64,000 nucleotides of DNA from Segatella cerevisiae (GTDB lineage Bacteria; Bacteroidota; Bacteroidia; Bacteroidales; Bacteroidaceae). A model generated the notes under the pieces. That model searched no databases and was not told where the DNA came from. It worked only from the letters and a program-made list of their open reading frames with translations. A program made the translations under genes and the position numbers. The stretch lies in the NCBI RefSeq assembly GCF_024054555.1, contig NZ_JAMXLY010000007.1, positions 1-64,000 of the forward strand. Reading direction: 5' to 3'. Shown here one piece after another: positions 56,583 to 63,741 of this stretch (its first letter is position 1; each line of letters begins with the position of its first letter).

Positions 56583-56922
56583 GTCGGCTTTCGGGATTTG
56601 AGAGGTTCCGAGTCGTAAATAGGATTTGGGCATGGATTGATGTCTGGAAAATTAACCTTTAAGCGGTGGGAGTCGATTTTGATGGCTCTTGCTGCTTTTT
56701 TGTTGAATTACCTGAATTTCACGGAGAGAAGATTCTTCTTTCATCTTATCTACCTTAGGCGTAGCCTTTGTAACGAACAGAAAATATATCGGGGTTTTTA
56801 TTAACCTTTTGCGTAAAAGTTTGCCATGAAACGTATTAATTATAAGAAAAAGTGTATCTTTGCATACAGTGTACTACCCTTAAAAACCTGCTAAATTAGC
56901 AACTATATCTTAAACAGTATTT
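56583..56922 (+). other. Upstream region of the uronate operon
   Basis: 340 bases without a gene. TATCTTTG at 56855-56862 is a good -7 box for the operon starting at 56923; the nearest TTTG is 31 bases upstream, too far for a proper -33. A short palindrome, GCTAAATTAGC (56890-56900), lies in the leader. Neither a regulator gene nor a clear operator is visible. Confidence 0.55.
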
Positions 56923-58341
56923 ATGGAACAAGTATTTAGTTATATTATTGGTCTTGGTGCGAGCGTAATGATGCCTATCATCTTTACGATTATCGGACTG
57001 TGTATCGGCATGAAATTCAGTAAAGCGTTGTTGTCCGGTCTATATGTCGGCGTTGGATTCGTCGGACTGGGTATCGTGACCGCTTTGCTGACAAAAAATT
57101 TCAGCGATCCCCTGACTTTGATGTCTCAAATTTATCACCTTAAACTGAAAGTGTTCGATATGGGATGGCCTGCTGCCGCTTCGGTCGCCTACAGTACTGC
57201 TGTCGGAGCACTGATTATCCCGATCTGCTTGGGTATAAATTTTCTGATGTTGATAACTAAAACAACTCGGACGGTCAATATTGATCTTTGGAATTACTGG
57301 CATTTTGCCTTTATCGGTTCTGTGGCTTATTTCTGCATGCACGAGAGTCTGGCATGGGGCTATTTTGCCGCTATCGTCTGCTATATGATCACTTTGGTCA
57401 TGGCTGATCTGACTGCTGACCGGTTCCAGAAATACTATCACTTGGAGGGGATTTCCATTCCTCAACCATTTTGTCAGAGTTTTCTGCCTTTCACATTGGC
57501 TATTGACTGGTTGTTGGATAAGATTCCGGGATTTGACAAACTCGATATTGATGCGGAAGGTATGAAGAAAAAGTTCGGAGTCCTTGGAGAACCGCTCGTA
57601 CTTGGTGTTATTGTCGGGGCGCTCATAGGGATCGTCGCTCGTATGGATATCAAGAAGATCCTCTTCCTGGGTATTACGATGGGTGCTGTGATGGAGTTGA
57701 TCCCACGTATTACCAAACTCTTTATCGATGGCTTGATGCCAATTTCCGACAAGACAAAGGAAGTGGTGGCCAGACGCTTCCACGGTAAAACCATTCATAT
57801 CGGAATGAGCCCTGCTCTGGTAATCGGACATCCGACTGCTTTGGTATGTACGCTGTTGCTGATCCCGACCTATCTTATTCTGTCAATCGTGCTGCCCGGT
57901 AATCAGTTCTTGCCATTGGCATCTTTGGCGGGCTTGTTCTATCTCTTTCCCGTGATGCTTCCTTATACTAAAGGAAATGTCCTGAAGAGTTATTTGGTGA
58001 GCCTTGTGGCACTGTTGTTCGGTTTGTGGTTCGTCACTGATATGGCACCTGATTTTACAATGGCAGCTAACTCTGTGTTCAAGGCAACTCAGGACCCGGC
58101 AACGAGTGTTCCCCAAGGATTCTTTGCGGGGAGTATGGATTTTGCCTCATCCTTGATCGGGTGGGTGATTTACAAACTCACTTGTTATGTGAAGTACATC
58201 GGACCTGCTGTTCTGGTCGTTGTAGTCTTGGCCATGATGTGGTATAACCGTCGTCGTATTCTGAAGGACGAGAAAGCTGCAGCAGCGCTTTTGGACGCTG
58301 AATCCAAGGGTGGAGACAGTCATGCCCCTCAAACGAAATAG
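56923..58341 (+). CDS. GatC-type PTS EIIC membrane protein (orphan)
   Basis: 472-residue polytopic inner-membrane protein homologous to EIIC of the galactitol PTS (GatC/SgcC). Matching blocks: VGFVGLGIV, VFDMGWPAAASV, TRTVNIDLWNYWHF, YHLEGISIPQP, FGVLGEPLVLGVIVG (substrate loop), DGLMPIS, GMSPALVIGHPTAL and VPGNQFLPLA. In classical PTS the EIIC forms the sugar path and EIIA/EIIB phosphorylate the substrate. Neither partner is in the window and Bacteroidetes usually lack the PTS altogether, so it may act as a phosphorylation-independent channel or carrier. First gene of an operon with kduI (23-base gap) and an ExuT-like transporter, which points to uronate derivatives as substrate. Confidence 0.85.
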   Translation: MEQVFSYIIGLGASVMMPIIFTIIGLCIGMKFSKALLSGLYVGVGFVGLGIVTALLTKNFSDPLTLMSQIYHLKLKVFDMGWPAAASVAYSTAVGALIIPICLGINFLMLITKTTRTVNIDLWNYWHFAFIGSVAYFCMHESLAWGYFAAIVCYMITLVMADLTADRFQKYYHLEGISIPQPFCQSFLPFTLAIDWLLDKIPGFDKLDIDAEGMKKKFGVLGEPLVLGVIVGALIGIVARMDIKKILFLGITMGAVMELIPRITKLFIDGLMPISDKTKEVVARRFHGKTIHIGMSPALVIGHPTALVCTLLLIPTYLILSIVLPGNQFLPLASLAGLFYLFPVMLPYTKGNVLKSYLVSLVALLFGLWFVTDMAPDFTMAANSVFKATQDPATSVPQGFFAGSMDFASSLIGWVIYKLTCYVKYIGPAVLVVVVLAMMWYNRRRILKDEKAAAALLDAESKGGDSHAPQTK

Positions 58342-58364: not shown

Positions 58365-59276
58365 ATGAAAAGAAAGATTTTAACAGTGGTGATGTGCCTG
58401 ATGGCCTGTTGGGGTATGGCGCAGAATGCTTACACACATTATGAAGTCCGCTGGGCCAGCAATCCCCGGGACGCGAAGCATTATGATACTGAGCGCCTGC
58501 GTAAGGAATTCCTGATCCAGAAGGTGATGGCACCGGGAGAGGTCAACTGGACCTATTCCCTTTATGACCGTTTCCTCGTCGGCGGTGCTGAGCCGGTGGA
58601 TGCTCCCCTGGAGCTGGCTTCCATTGCCCCGTTGGATACAAAGAACCTGTTGGATAATCGTGAACTGGGTATCATTAATATCGGTGGTGACGGTGTGGTG
58701 ACCGTTGACGGCAAGGATTATCCCCTCGCCTTTCAGGAGGCCCTGTACATCGGCCGTGGCTCATACCAGATCACCGTTTCCAGCAAGGATCCTGCTCATC
58801 CGGCCAAGTTCTATCTGAACAGTGCTTGTGCACAGAAGGCTTATCCGATCAGGAAGGTGACGTTGAAGGAGGCTCATAATATCAAAGCTGGCTCTCTGGC
58901 TGGCAGCAATGACCGGGTGATCCACCAGATGATCATTGACGGTGTGGCCGGCGTACATACGTGCCAGTTGCAGATGGGCATCACGGAATTGAAGGAAGGC
59001 TCTGTATGGAACACGATGCCGGCTCATACCCACCTCCGTCGCATGGAGACCTATTTCTATTATAAGATCCCAGAGGGCCAGCAGGTCCTTCATATTATGG
59101 GAGAACCGCAGGAGACACGTCCCATCTGGGTCAAGAATGAGCAGGCTGTCATCTCTCCTCAATGGAGTATCCATTGTGGGGCAGGAACGTCCAACTATAC
59201 CTTTATCTGGGGAATGGCGGGAGAGAACCTGATCTATACCGATATGCAGGTCGTCAAGATCTCTGACCTCAAATAG
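58365..59276 (+). CDS. kduI: 5-keto-4-deoxyuronate isomerase with export signal
   Basis: Isomerises 4-deoxy-L-threo-5-hexosulose uronate to 3-deoxy-D-glycero-2,5-hexodiulosonate in breakdown of unsaturated uronates from pectin or glycosaminoglycans. The 303-residue protein has the KduI core: HYDTERLRKEFLIQKV, YDRFLVGGAEPV, REVGIINIGG-type strand (RELGIINIGGDG), and the metal site AHTHLRRMET (His, His, Glu near 221-229) with a later His in WSIHCGAGTSN. Unlike cytoplasmic KduI of about 280 residues, it begins MKRKILTVVMCLMACWGMAQ, a basic then hydrophobic stretch ending GMA-Q, a typical Sec signal (LMAC at 12-15 is near a lipobox). A periplasmic location is inferred. Confidence 0.85.
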   Translation: MKRKILTVVMCLMACWGMAQNAYTHYEVRWASNPRDAKHYDTERLRKEFLIQKVMAPGEVNWTYSLYDRFLVGGAEPVDAPLELASIAPLDTKNLLDNRELGIINIGGDGVVTVDGKDYPLAFQEALYIGRGSYQITVSSKDPAHPAKFYLNSACAQKAYPIRKVTLKEAHNIKAGSLAGSNDRVIHQMIIDGVAGVHTCQLQMGITELKEGSVWNTMPAHTHLRRMETYFYYKIPEGQQVLHIMGEPQETRPIWVKNEQAVISPQWSIHCGAGTSNYTFIWGMAGENLIYTDMQVVKISDLK

Positions 59277-59325: not shown

Positions 59326-60807
59326 ATGAGTTCTGTTCAAACTACTAAGAAAACCAATTATCGGTGGGTGATCTGTTCCATGCTCTTCTTTGCCACAACG
59401 GTCAATTACATGGACCGTCAGGTATTGTCACTGACGTGGAAGGATTTCATCGCTCCGGAATTTCACTGGACGGATGCCGATTATGGCGTGGTAACAGGGA
59501 TTTTCTCTATTCTCTATGCGTTCTTTTGCCTTTTTGCAGGTAAGTTTATTGACAAGTTAGGGACGAAGAAGGGGTATCTTACCGCCATTGGCATTTGGTC
59601 TGTGGGTGCCTGTATGCACGCTGCCTGCGGATGGGCGACCATGCATATCGTGGGGGTTCCATCATTGGCAGCCCTGCGTGCCGTGAAAGCTGGATCAGAA
59701 TTGGCTTTGTCCATCTCCACGGTCTCTGTCTATCTCTTTCTTTTCTGCAGGGCAGTGCTTGCCATGGGTGAGTCCGGTAACTTCCCTTCGGCTATCAAGG
59801 TGACGGCTGAATATTTCCCGAAGAAAGACCGTGCGTTTGCTACGGCGATCTTTAATAGCGGGGCGTCTATCGGAGCCCTGGCGGCACCGGTCACGATCCC
59901 TGTCCTGGCTGAACATCTCGGTTGGGAGATGGCCTTCATCATCATCGGTGGACTGGGTTTCATCTGGATGGCTCTGTGGGTATTCATCTATGATCGGCCT
60001 AAAGACAGTAAGCATGTGAATGATGCGGAAATGACGTATATTAATCAGGATCAGGAGAATGACGGTCGGGTAAAGGCGGCAGAGGAGACGAGAAAAGAGG
60101 AGAAGACGATTCCCTTCCTCAAGTGTTTCCGTTATCGTCAGACTTGGTCCTTCATCGTCGGTAAATTTATGACGGATGGTGTATGGTGGTTCTATTTATT
60201 TTGGGCACCTGCCTATTTTTCCGATCAGTTCAATTACGGTTCAAATACCACGATGGGAAAATTATTGATTTTTGTCCTCTATTTCATCGTGACGGTGATC
60301 TCAATCTTCGGTGGTTATCTGCCGAAATTCTTCGTGGAGAAGAAGGGGATGGGAGCTTATCGCGGACGTATGCTCGCCATGCTGATCTTTGCCTTCTTCC
60401 CATTGCTGGCTCTCTTTGCACAACCCTTGGCTTCCTGGAAAGCCAGTCCTATTGATCCGGCATGGTGGCCGGCAATCATCATCGGGCTCGCCGGTGCAGG
60501 ACACCAGGCATGGTCTGCCAACCTCTTTTCAACTATCGGCGATATGTTCCCTACCAGTACGGTAGCCACGATTACCGGTATCGGTACCATGGCGGGAGGT
60601 ATCGGCTCCTGGCTGATCAATACAGGGTCAGGTGAACTCTTTACCTATGCAGAGAATGCCGGGTCAGCTTTTACTTTCCTCGGTTTCTCAGGCAAGCCTG
60701 CCGGGTATATGATTATCTTCTGCATCTGTGCCGTAGCCTATCTGATAGGCTGGGCAATCATGAAGACCCTCGTACCGAAATACAGGCCTATTGCTACGGA
60801 CAAATAA
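59326..60807 (+). CDS. MFS transporter, ExuT/hexuronate-like (ACS family)
   Basis: 493-residue major facilitator with 12 membrane segments of the anion:cation symporter family. Signatures: TTVNYMDRQVLSLTWKDF in TM1, FAGKFIDKLGTKKG in the TM2-3 loop, GMGES-type motif as LAMGESGNFPSAIK, and FFPKKDRAFATAIFNSGAS-like sequence. These match hexuronate transporters such as ExuT. Third gene of the operon, 49 bases after kduI; closed by the terminator at 60855-60897. It could import free uronates or the KduI product. Confidence 0.88.
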   Translation: MSSVQTTKKTNYRWVICSMLFFATTVNYMDRQVLSLTWKDFIAPEFHWTDADYGVVTGIFSILYAFFCLFAGKFIDKLGTKKGYLTAIGIWSVGACMHAACGWATMHIVGVPSLAALRAVKAGSELALSISTVSVYLFLFCRAVLAMGESGNFPSAIKVTAEYFPKKDRAFATAIFNSGASIGALAAPVTIPVLAEHLGWEMAFIIIGGLGFIWMALWVFIYDRPKDSKHVNDAEMTYINQDQENDGRVKAAEETRKEEKTIPFLKCFRYRQTWSFIVGKFMTDGVWWFYLFWAPAYFSDQFNYGSNTTMGKLLIFVLYFIVTVISIFGGYLPKFFVEKKGMGAYRGRMLAMLIFAFFPLLALFAQPLASWKASPIDPAWWPAIIIGLAGAGHQAWSANLFSTIGDMFPTSTVATITGIGTMAGGIGSWLINTGSGELFTYAENAGSAFTFLGFSGKPAGYMIIFCICAVAYLIGWAIMKTLVPKYRPIATDK

Positions 60808-61559: not shown

Positions 61560-62234
61560 ATGAGAAAGGACGATTCACATACACAAATCAAATCCAGAGA
61601 AAGGGTTTCAAATCATGGAGAGGTATTCACTGCACCACGAGAAGTAAATGCGATGCTGGACCTTGTCAAGGGAGAAACAGAACGTATTGACTCACGGTTT
61701 CTTGAGCCGGCTTGTGGAACGGGTAATTTCGTTACGGTTATTCTGGAACGTAAATTGCGTGTGGCCAGACAACTCTATGCCAAGGATAAAGTCTTGTATG
61801 AATTGAATGCTTTGATTGCTGTTGGCAGTATTTATGGTATAGAACTTTTGCAAGATAATGTCAAGGAATGTCGGAATAGATTATCCAGCCAATTCAAGAA
61901 TGAATATCTTTCTGTTTTTCCTCAAGGACCTAATCCGGGATATTTTCAGAGTATAGATTATATTTTCTACCAGAATATCCTGTGGGGGGATGCCTTAACT
62001 TTAAAGACTCCGGAAGAACACCCTGTTCCGATTGTTTTTTCTGAATGGACCGTAATTAATGGACAAATCAAGAGACGGGACTATACGATGGCCAATCTGA
62101 TGGAGAATCAACCAATGGAGGGTCCGAATCTGTTTTCTGATTTGGGGGATGAGGCTTTTATTCCAACTCCAATAAAGGAATTTCCTCTGACTAATTATCT
62201 AAAAATAGCTGAATATGAAGAATTACAATCCTGA
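61560..62234 (+). CDS. Methyltransferase subunit with AdoMet motif (Eco57I-like cassette)
   Basis: 224-residue protein resembling the N-terminal AdoMet-binding part of adenine-N6 DNA methyltransferases of restriction-modification systems. It shows GEVFTAPREVNAMLDL, the AdoMet motif I FLEPACGTGNF (48-57), a motif II-like YGIELLQDNVKECRNRL and a WGDAL motif III. The motif IV tetrapeptide (N/D)PPY is absent, and the last 80 residues (EEHPVPIVFSEW ... NLMENQPMEGPN) are a different, short domain. Its stop lies 20 bases inside the next gene, which carries NPPY, so the two may form one split enzyme. Starts at a clear ATG with an A-rich upstream. Confidence 0.8.
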   Translation: MRKDDSHTQIKSRERVSNHGEVFTAPREVNAMLDLVKGETERIDSRFLEPACGTGNFVTVILERKLRVARQLYAKDKVLYELNALIAVGSIYGIELLQDNVKECRNRLSSQFKNEYLSVFPQGPNPGYFQSIDYIFYQNILWGDALTLKTPEEHPVPIVFSEWTVINGQIKRRDYTMANLMENQPMEGPNLFSDLGDEAFIPTPIKEFPLTNYLKIAEYEELQS

Positions 62235-63741
62235 TGTCCTTTCGTGTCTTGCCAATTTAAGTAACGATGAGGTCTTTACACCACCAGCTTTGGCAAATCA
62301 GATACTGGATATGTTGCCTGATGAAATCTGGCATGATAGTACAGCGACTTTTCTGGATCCGGTATGCAAGTCCGGCGTGTTCCTTCGTGAAATAGCAAAA
62401 CGATTGATTAATGGATTAAAGGATGAAATACCTGATTTACAGGAAAGACTCAATCATATTTTTACTCAACAGCTTTATGGTATTGCGATTACAGATTTAA
62501 CTTCATTATTATCACGAAGAAGCGTATATTGCAGTAAAACAGCTAATGGCGAGTATTCTGTTTGCACGACATTTAAGGATGAAAGTGGTAATATTCGTTT
62601 TCATGAAATGAAGCATACCTGGAAAGATGGAAAGTGTGTTTATTGTGGGGCAAGCCAGAGCGTTTATGATCGTGGTGATGATTATGAAAGTCATGCATAC
62701 GAATTTATACATACTGATGATCCGAATGTTATATTTAATAAGATGAAATTTGATGTTATTATAGGTAATCCTCCATACCAATTGAATGATGGAGGTGGAA
62801 CTGGTTCTAGTGCGATTCCAATTTATCAGAAATTTGTTGAGCAGGCTCAAAGGTTATCGCCAAAATATCTTTGTATGATTATCCCGGCTAGATGGTATAC
62901 AGGTGGTAGAGGATTGGATGAATTTCGTGATAAAATGTTACATGATAAATGTATTAGAGTTTTACATGATTTCCCCGATGCTTCAGAATGTTTCCCTGGT
63001 GTTCAAATAAAAGGAGGAGTTTGCTATTTCTTGTGGGAAAAGGGAAACGCTGGCAAATGTGAGATATTTACACATCAACATGAGAAAATAGAAATATCAA
63101 ATAGATTTCTGATTGAGAAAGGTGCCAAGATCTTTATTAGAAATAATCACGCAATAAATATTTTAGGAAAGATAAAATCAGAGAGCTTTAAAAGTTTTTC
63201 TTCTTTAATAAGTTCTAATGATCCTTTTGGTTATGATGTTCGAGAAAAGAATAGTTATAAAAGGGTTATGCCTCAATTTCAATTGACACCTGGAAATAAT
63301 TACATTCTATTTTATTATAATGGGTGGCGAAGTAAAGGAATCGGATATATATCAAAAGATTCTGTGAAAAAAAATCGAGATTGGATATCTAAGTATAAGA
63401 TCTTAATACCTAAAGCATGGGGCAACGGCAATGTTGCTACAGATTGGCTTAATCCTATCTATGAAGAAAAACCATGTTGCTGTACAGAAACGTATTTAGT
63501 TGTTGGTCCCTTTTTATCTTCTAAAGAAGCTCATAGTGTGCTTTCTTATATTCAAACTAAATTTTTCCATTTTTTGGTTTCTTTAGTTAAGATCACTCAA
63601 AATGCGATGAAAGGAGCTTATACTTTTGTGCCTTTATTGGATTTTGATCAGATATGGACAGATGAACTTCTTTATTCAAAATATAAATTGAGCCAAGAAG
63701 AAATTCATTTTATTGAAAATACAGTACATGTTTCAGAGTAA
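62215..63741 (+). CDS. Eco57I-type DNA methyltransferase
   Basis: 508-residue adenine-N6 methyltransferase-like protein. It begins with the same VFTPP-type motif as its neighbour (NDEVFTPPALANQILDML). Motif I is degenerate, DPVCKSGVF at 48-56 where the family has DPxxGxGxF. Motif IV NPPY (185-188) is intact in DVIIGNPPYQLNDGGGTG, and the target-recognition-like C-terminal half is rich in Phe, Lys and Ile. A CVYC pair (141, 144) after HTWKDGK may be half of a zinc site. It overlaps the preceding gene by 20 bases in another frame and is markedly AT-richer than the housekeeping genes by eye, suggesting horizontal transfer. Five bases separate it from the GIY-YIG-type gene. Confidence 0.85.
   Translation: MKNYNPDVLSCLANLSNDEVFTPPALANQILDMLPDEIWHDSTATFLDPVCKSGVFLREIAKRLINGLKDEIPDLQERLNHIFTQQLYGIAITDLTSLLSRRSVYCSKTANGEYSVCTTFKDESGNIRFHEMKHTWKDGKCVYCGASQSVYDRGDDYESHAYEFIHTDDPNVIFNKMKFDVIIGNPPYQLNDGGGTGSSAIPIYQKFVEQAQRLSPKYLCMIIPARWYTGGRGLDEFRDKMLHDKCIRVLHDFPDASECFPGVQIKGGVCYFLWEKGNAGKCEIFTHQHEKIEISNRFLIEKGAKIFIRNNHAINILGKIKSESFKSFSSLISSNDPFGYDVREKNSYKRVMPQFQLTPGNNYILFYYNGWRSKGIGYISKDSVKKNRDWISKYKILIPKAWGNGNVATDWLNPIYEEKPCCCTETYLVVGPFLSSKEAHSVLSYIQTKFFHFLVSLVKITQNAMKGAYTFVPLLDFDQIWTDELLYSKYKLSQEEIHFIENTVHVSE

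What the first reader, a model, noticed from the sequence alone, without database searches (positions are those of the whole stretch)
58365..59276. KduI isomerase with a predicted secretion signal
KduI is normally a cytoplasmic enzyme of about 280 residues. Here the complete catalytic core, including the His-x-His...Glu and later His metal ligands, is preceded by a 20-residue N-terminus with the basic-hydrophobic-GMA-Q layout of a Sec signal. If it is exported, conversion of the unsaturated-uronate product would take place in the periplasm and the transported species would be the diketo acid, not the oligouronide or 5-keto product. That would reorder the known uronate pathway.
Basis: partly seen in the sequence, partly recalled or inferred. 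Interest (0 to 1): 0.65.

Follow-up and report, generated by a model that had tools for sequence, protein, structure and literature searches.

The report
Exported KduI isomerase with orphan permease
Many gut and rumen Bacteroides and Prevotella relatives appear to export an isomerase of pectin-sugar breakdown that normally works inside the cell, and to pair it with a lone membrane permease, so the sugar intermediate they take up is probably not the one textbooks show.

Summary
Window 58365-59276 (+) encodes an intact KduI preceded by a Sec-type leader (MKRKILTVVMCLMACWGMA|Q), with all four metal ligands kept. It is not an oddity of one genome. Of 100 genomes of the genus, 47 carry a leader-bearing KduI (28 of them no other KduI) and 30 only a leaderless one. 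Leader-bearing KduIs also occur in Bacteroides and Phocaeicola. They include the crystallised B. ovatus KduI2 (PDB 9KD0); a gene encoding that exact protein has the leader, which the deposited chain lacks.

The gene lies between an orphan EIIC-GAT/GatC-like permease and an MFS transporter. The permease is present in 47 of 47 genomes with leader-bearing KduI and in 0 of 30 with only leaderless KduI. No clear PTS enzyme I was found in these bacteria. A leaderless KduD-like reductase is present in 33 of 34 leader-KduI genomes tested and in 0 of 8 without any KduI.

Best reading: isomerisation happens in the periplasm, the diketo acid is imported (probably by the orphan permease), and KduD reduces it inside. 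The leader and gene linkage are shown; localisation and transport substrate are inferred. Ten paper searches found no description of this.

The parts
56923..58341 (+). Orphan EIIC-GAT/GatC-like permease, 472 aa; candidate importer of the diketo acid
   Evidence: PF03611 251.8 bits, over cut-off; TIGR00827 378.1 bits, under its cut-off of 542.2. AlphaFold2 model (pLDDT 82.3) matches GatC 9u82, Z 34.1, and UlaA 4rp9, Z 25.2. Present in 47 of 47 leader-KduI genomes and 0 of 30 leaderless-only ones.
58365..59276 (+). KduI with leader, 303 aa
   Evidence: NF002091 392.7 bits; AlphaFold2 pLDDT 91.5, best match E. coli KduI 1xru Z 42.7, rmsd 1.3. 23 bp after the permease gene.
58365..58424 (+). Sec-type leader, residues 1-20 (MKRKILTVVMCLMACWGMAQ; cleavage predicted before Q20)
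   Evidence: [AGS]Q cleavage-like site in 118 of 122 leader-bearing homologues; leader diverges much faster than core.
59025..59033 (+). H221-T-H223 metal ligands
   Evidence: Conserved in 122 of 122 complete leader-bearing and 80 of 80 complete leaderless sequences.
59046..59048 (+). E228 metal ligand
   Evidence: Same counts.
59172..59174 (+). H270 metal ligand
   Evidence: Same counts.
59326..60807 (+). MFS transporter, 493 aa, related to D-galactonate/hexuronate (ACS-type) carriers; probably an organic-acid or uronate carrier
   Evidence: PF07690 178.7 bits; best NCBIfam TIGR00893 176.7 bits, under its cut-off of 395; PDB hit 6e9n D-galactonate transporter. 49 bp after kduI. A homologue also lies beside a leaderless KduI (L189), so it is not specific to the exported form.
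56855..56862 (+). Possible Bacteroidota -7 promoter element TATCTTTG, 61 bp before the permease start (weak; consensus TAnnTTTG recalled)
   Evidence: Single motif hit, no -33 element checked.

Best explanation
A three-gene unit rewires unsaturated-uronate catabolism. Exported GH88/GH105-type hydrolases release 5-keto-4-deoxyuronate (DKI) in the periplasm. The leader-bearing KduI is exported by Sec, cut before Q20, folds as a metal-dependent KduI cupin and converts DKI to 2,5-diketo-3-deoxygluconate (DKII) there. DKII crosses the inner membrane, most likely through the orphan EIIC-GAT-like permease working as a secondary carrier or facilitator without phosphorylation. Cytosolic KduD then reduces it to 2-keto-3-deoxygluconate, which enters the KdgK/Eda route. 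The MFS carrier probably brings in saturated hexuronates or a related acid. Shown here: leader, intact enzyme, gene linkage, co-occurrence, retention of KduD, lack of a clear PTS enzyme I. Inferred: cleavage, periplasmic location, activity of this protein, and which compound each carrier moves. My odds: periplasmic KduI about 0.9; DKII as the imported species about 0.75; the EIIC-like protein as its carrier about 0.6.
For: (1) Leader in 47 of 47 intact proteins of two clades of the genus, 0 of 49 in the third; 76 of 76 KduI genes found beside the permease in 80 named-genome loci; 22 of 22 Bacteroides/Phocaeicola-group loci read. (2) Catalytic ligands kept in 122 of 122. (3) The gene that encodes a protein identical over 285 residues to B. 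ovatus KduI2 (9KD0) has the leader MKKLAIAMMLGIAAMSASAQ and sits between the same permease and MFS; the PDB chain begins at most two residues before the predicted mature sequence. (4) Permease present in 47 of 47 leader-KduI genomes, 0 of 30 leaderless-only; one genome (G002) has it without any KduI. (5) PTS enzyme I (PF05524): 0 of 20 genomes over cut-off in the genus, 15 of them with the module; 1 of 12 in the sister groups, borderline (24.7 against 24.4). (6) KduD-like gene in 33 of 34 leader-KduI genomes, including 29 of the 30 with no other KduI, against 0 of 8 without KduI. (7) In G024 and G045 the ancestral slot tyrS-kduI-kduD has lost kduI and kept kduD. (8) Operons: kduD-permease-kduI-PfkB kinase (G091); DUF2264-GH88-x-kduD-permease-kduI-DUF4861 (G038); DUF2264-kduD-DUF4861-permease-kduI-kdgK (G565). 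(9) All 3 GH88 hits over cut-off in the window's genome carry leaders.
Against: No localisation, activity or transport data. The signal-peptide rule is home-made and flags 11 of 79 cytosolic KduD-like proteins. A start at Met18 (MAQNAYTHYEV...) would give a leaderless KduI in this genome; only 46 of 122 leader-bearing proteins (5 of 25 near the window's clade) lack any in-frame ATG between residue 9 and the core, and GTG/TTG were not examined. GH88 proteins carry leaders in leaderless-KduI genomes too (27 of 28 read, both kinds), so periplasmic DKI does not by itself explain export. Permease without KduI: G002 and, within the stretch held, L217 and L249. KduD-like gene not found in G030, 92% complete. 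KduD-like proteins score under the curated kduD cut-off (212-235 against 338.85). The genomes are related, so the p-value (5.7e-28) overstates independence. The window's genome still has a leaderless KduI beside kduD.
Confidence: 0.62

Rival explanations
1. The exported KduI acts on DKI outside mainly to detoxify or stabilise this reactive aldehyde, or to make a compound for cross-feeding, while DKI or saturated uronate stays the main imported species.
For: 19 of 47 leader-KduI genomes also keep a leaderless KduI, so an import route for DKI may persist there; the MFS neighbour could carry DKI or uronates.
Against: 28 of 47 genomes have no other KduI found (11 of these at least 90% complete) but keep a KduD-like gene where tested, which needs DKII inside; the permease tracks the exported form only.
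Confidence: 0.17
2. The exported enzyme has shifted substrate: it isomerises another uronate in the periplasm (for example galacturonate or glucuronate), and the permease takes up that product.
For: Position 98 is Asn in 115 of 123 leader-bearing and Arg in 79 of 83 leaderless sequences; clades are 50-58% identical to each other. A side activity of KduI on hexuronates is recalled, not checked.
Against: All metal ligands and the fold are kept; it replaces cytosolic KduI in genomes that keep KduD; operons hold KduD, kinase and GH88. B. ovatus KduI2 is titled as a glycosaminoglycan-metabolism KduI.
Confidence: 0.12
3. The leader is not functional, or an internal start makes the working protein, so the enzyme stays in the cytosol.
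For: Met18 in the window gene and other internal Met codons in many homologues.
Against: Leader character is kept while its sequence diverges (mean identity 0.36-0.40 against 0.79-0.84 in the core); 46 of 122 have no internal ATG; the label changes once on the tree; the permease link is specific.
Confidence: 0.06
4. It is a surface lipoprotein: the leader contains L-M-A-C15.
For: Lipobox-like LMAC in this leader.
Against: Cys at that place is not kept in the other clade-A leaders, whereas [AGS]Q is kept in 118 of 122.
Confidence: 0.03

Closest known systems
KduI, 5-dehydro-4-deoxy-D-glucuronate (5-keto-4-deoxyuronate) isomerase; E. coli 1XRU/1X8M, L. rhamnosus 7E4S
   Same: Full-length family match, cupin fold, four metal ligands.
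   Different: These KduI chains lack the leader; here a Sec-type leader is added.
Bacteroides ovatus KduI2, PDB 9KD0 (released 2025-10-29)
   Same: Same leader-bearing branch; a gene for the identical protein has the leader and the same permease/MFS neighbours.
   Different: Deposited without the leader; title says glycosaminoglycan metabolism and nothing on location. I found no paper on it. Window protein is about 55% identical.
Galactitol PTS permease GatC / EIIC-GAT (L. grimontii 9U82) and ascorbate EIIC UlaA
   Same: Same family and fold.
   Different: Under the galactitol-specific cut-off; no IIA/IIB gene named beside it; no clear enzyme I in the genomes tested.
GatC and a GatC-like EIIC of E. 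coli as xylose carriers (PMC10989795, passages read)
   Same: Shows EIIC-GAT proteins can move a sugar other than the PTS substrate; the authors class it as facilitated diffusion.
   Different: Those strains have IIA/IIB and the whole PTS; substrate is xylose.
Canonical KduI-KduD-KdgK-Eda pathway
   Same: Same enzymes and intermediates; KduD-like reductase kept.
   Different: Isomerase step moved outside the inner membrane; different compound imported.

Membership tests
KduI (NF002091) | Full-length match over the curated cut-off | tested here: met
   392.7 bits against 250, profile 2-277 of 277
KduI (NF002091) | Metal ligands HxH...E and later H | tested here: met
   H221, H223, E228, H270; 122 of 122 complete leader-bearing sequences
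KduI (NF002091) | KduI fold | tested here: met
   1xru Z 42.7, rmsd 1.3, 279 aligned
KduI (NF002091) | Isomerase activity on DKI | not testable with these tools
   No assay; 9KD0 title only
Sec/SPI-exported protein | n-, h- and c-region with cleavage site | tested here: met
   Crude rule only, no SignalP
Sec/SPI-exported protein | Periplasmic location, cleaved N-terminus | not testable with these tools
   Needs fractionation or N-terminal mass spectrometry
Galactitol-specific PTS EIIC (TIGR00827) | Curated score cut-off | tested here: not met
   378.1 against 542.2 bits
EIIC-GAT family (PF03611) | Family score and fold | tested here: met
   251.8 against 24.2 bits; GatC Z 34.1
Working PTS | Enzyme I in the genome | tested here: not met
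   0 of 20 genomes over cut-off incl. the window's; 1 of 12 sister-group genomes borderline. HPr, IIA and IIB were not searched
KduD (TIGR01832), for the partner reductase | Curated score cut-off | tested here: not met
   212-235 bits against 338.85 in 10 genomes at E <= 1e-60; called KduD-like from its place beside leaderless kduI

The most novel reading that the evidence does not exclude
In roughly half of Prevotella-group and Bacteroides-group genomes sampled, unsaturated-uronate catabolism has been re-plumbed: the KduI step is periplasmic, and an orphan PTS-type EIIC permease, in bacteria without a PTS, has become a phosphorylation-independent importer of 2,5-diketo-3-deoxygluconate.
Probability: 0.5. 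Interest if true: 0.78.

Novelty: new variant of a known kind. Interest (0 to 1): 0.64.

Why it matters
Pectin and glycosaminoglycan lyase products feed many gut and rumen Bacteroidota, yet in the passages I read of a 2022 review of their glycosaminoglycan use (PMC9067506) the monomers are simply 'imported' across the inner membrane, with only a putative hexose carrier named for heparan sulphate. Here is a concrete, testable candidate carrier for the unsaturated-uronate branch and a change in which compound crosses the membrane. Pathway reconstructions that place KduI in the cytosol would be wrong for these organisms. An EIIC protein at work without a PTS would also be a clean natural case for how such permeases move sugars on their own.

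Tried and rejected
Considered and set aside: (a) chance or misread start: rejected, since the leader is kept in all intact clade members, though an extra internal start cannot be excluded for this gene. (b) Lipoprotein via LMAC: Cys not conserved. (c) A Prevotella-only trait: rejected. (d) Export explained by exported GH88 alone: not supported, because GH88 proteins carry leaders in leaderless-KduI genomes too. (e) DKII import by the MFS: possible, but an MFS of that kind also lies beside a leaderless KduI (L189), and MFS is found in only 48 of the 80 named loci, some of them cut short, and in 19 of 22.

What led nowhere: ten paper searches found no report of an exported KduI; papers under other licences are not held. 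Papers were seen as follows: PMC12269599 abstract/outline and passages; PMC10989795, PMC9067506, PMC7953866, PMC5306329, PMC5430744 passages only; the rest as search listings. Phylum survey: KduI in 101 of 392 genomes; I read N-termini in 35 of these genomes and found leaders in 3 (plus for L189); for the rest only the alignment start and frame length were seen. The tree ('quick' method) needs one change of the leader label, but the branch joining the two leader clades has SH-aLRT 76, so one origin is favoured, not shown; long branches met among the outgroups.

Rows dropped before counts: three 5'-truncated KduI (L099, L101, L102) were left unclassified; G071's only KduI is one of these, so 47 + 30 + 1 = 78 genomes. 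Of 35 GH88 matches I read 29, leaving out six partial or weak ones (L140, L141, L145, L333, L338, L341); one of the 29 (L144) gave no hit with my seeds.

Full report
What is there. Window 58365-59276 (+) is a complete KduI gene, 303 codons. The KduI family model covers residues 27-303 at 392.7 bits, over its cut-off of 250. The first 20 residues, MKRKILTVVMCLMACWGMAQ, have a basic start, a hydrophobic stretch and a GMA|Q site. The four metal ligands are present: H221, H223, E228, H270. An AlphaFold2 model from 33 aligned sequences (pLDDT 91.5) matches E. coli KduI at Z 42.7, rmsd 1.3. The gene lies 23 bp after an EIIC-GAT-like permease gene (56923-58341) and 49 bp before an MFS gene (59326-60807), all on the + strand.

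Is the leader real? I took KduI from 100 genomes of the genus and fetched the N-termini. 78 of 100 genomes have a KduI. Among 99 distinct sequences, 47 have a leader (10 near the window protein, 67-100% identical; 37 of a second clade, about 45-52%), 49 have none and begin near MKTNYEIRYA, and 3 are cut at the 5' end. With 76 further named loci and the phylum sample, 122 complete leader-bearing proteins show an [AGS]Q site in 118, a leader that varies far more than the core (mean pairwise identity 0.36-0.40 against 0.79-0.84), and higher N-terminal hydropathy than 80 leaderless ones. My rule is crude: it flags 11 of 79 KduD-like and 0 of 41 MurF-Alr controls. An internal start at Met18 cannot be excluded for this gene, but 46 of 122 leader-bearing homologues have no internal ATG at all in that stretch.

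How widespread? The permease was found in 3 of 392 Bacteroidota genomes sampled evenly and KduI in 101 of 392. Of 35 such genomes whose N-termini I read, the 3 with the permease have the leader and the other 32 do not. In the window's genus the permease is in 48 of 100. In the genus of G329, 38 of 80 genomes have a full-length match of at least 69% identity starting at residue 1 of G329's leader-bearing KduI, plus one partial; I read 20 of these and all 20 have the leader. Named carriers include Hallella colorans, H. seregens, Hoylesella loescheii, H. enoeca, Segatella baroniae, Xylanibacter ruminicola, Prevotella ruminicola, Bacteroides finegoldii and Phocaeicola massiliensis.

A solved relative. 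PDB 9KD0 is titled B. ovatus KduI2 and 9KCZ B. ovatus KduI1. 9KD0 falls in the leader branch and 9KCZ in the leaderless branch. The deposited chain matches from its residue 3, so the leader is not in it. That the depositors removed it knowingly is my inference.

The permease goes with the exported form. Leader-bearing KduI: 47 genomes, permease in 47. Only leaderless KduI: 30 genomes, permease in 0. One genome, G002 (81% complete), has the permease without KduI. Fisher p = 5.7e-28, not corrected for relatedness. The permease belongs to EIIC-GAT (PF03611) but falls under the galactitol-specific cut-off; its model matches GatC (Z 34.1) and UlaA (Z 25.2). PTS enzyme I was over its cut-off in 0 of 20 genomes of the genus and, borderline, in 1 of 12 sister-group genomes (24.7 against 24.4 bits, in an 1115-codon frame). 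HPr, IIA and IIB were not searched. So the permease is unlikely to work by phosphotransfer. E. coli EIIC-GAT proteins have been reported to carry xylose, described there as facilitated diffusion (PMC10989795, passages).

Which compound enters? A KduD-like reductase, without a leader, is found in 33 of 34 leader-KduI genomes tested, including 29 of 30 that have no other KduI, and in 0 of 8 genomes without KduI; the exception is G030 (92% complete). These reductases score 212-235 bits, under the curated kduD cut-off of 338.85, so the name rests on family and on their place beside leaderless kduI. In G024 and G045 the slot tyrS-kduI-kduD seen in other genomes has lost kduI but kept kduD. In G091 the order is kduD, permease, leader-bearing kduI, PfkB-family kinase; in G064 permease, kduI, kduD; in G038 DUF2264, GH88, a 595-aa protein, kduD, permease, kduI, DUF4861; in G565 DUF2264, kduD, DUF4861, permease, kduI, kdgK. 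An isomerase outside and its next enzyme inside, with a permease between them in the operon, points to import of DKII.

A result against the simplest story: GH88-type hydrolases carry leaders in both kinds of genome (27 of 28 read by eye). So DKI is probably made in the periplasm everywhere, and the genus seems to hold two solutions: import DKI and isomerise inside, or isomerise outside and import DKII. The permease tracks only the second. 19 of the 47 genomes, and the window's own, have both KduI types.

Origin. On a tree built without the leader columns (71 sequences), the leader label changes once; the branch uniting the two leader clades has SH-aLRT 76. One origin is favoured, not proven.

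Novelty. KduI and EIIC-GAT are known families; the exported form and its pairing with an orphan permease are a new variant. Ten searches of the paper library found nothing on it, and the 9KD0 report itself was not found, so it may describe the leader. Interest 0.64: a specialist would be surprised by the compartment and by the PTS-less EIIC, and the question is directly testable; it stays short of higher because location and transport are inferred.

Noticed in passing
L039, L047, L049, L052, L070 (between the permease and kduI); L249 after the permease: A 142-148 aa gene (GxxExxY-like, label recalled) is inserted between the permease and leader-bearing kduI in some genomes; it is not in the window.
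   Followed up: no
window 58656-58658 (residue 98 of KduI): Position 98 is Asn in 115 of 123 leader-bearing KduI and Arg in 79 of 83 leaderless ones and in E. coli; the Bacteroides-type 9KD0 keeps Arg. Could bear on substrate or stability.
   Followed up: partly
window 61560-63741 (+): Two adjacent ORFs with DNA methyltransferase matches (MmeI_Mtase weak, Eco57I 133 bits) follow the MFS gene; looks like a restriction-modification region.
   Followed up: no
L059 2379-3665 and 10181-11350; L305: DUF2264 and DUF4861 proteins recur in operons with the permease and leader-bearing kduI, suggesting roles in the same uronate pathway.
   Followed up: no
L129 958-2937 (G002): The one genus genome with the permease but no KduI has it in a 659-codon frame, longer than usual.
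   Followed up: no
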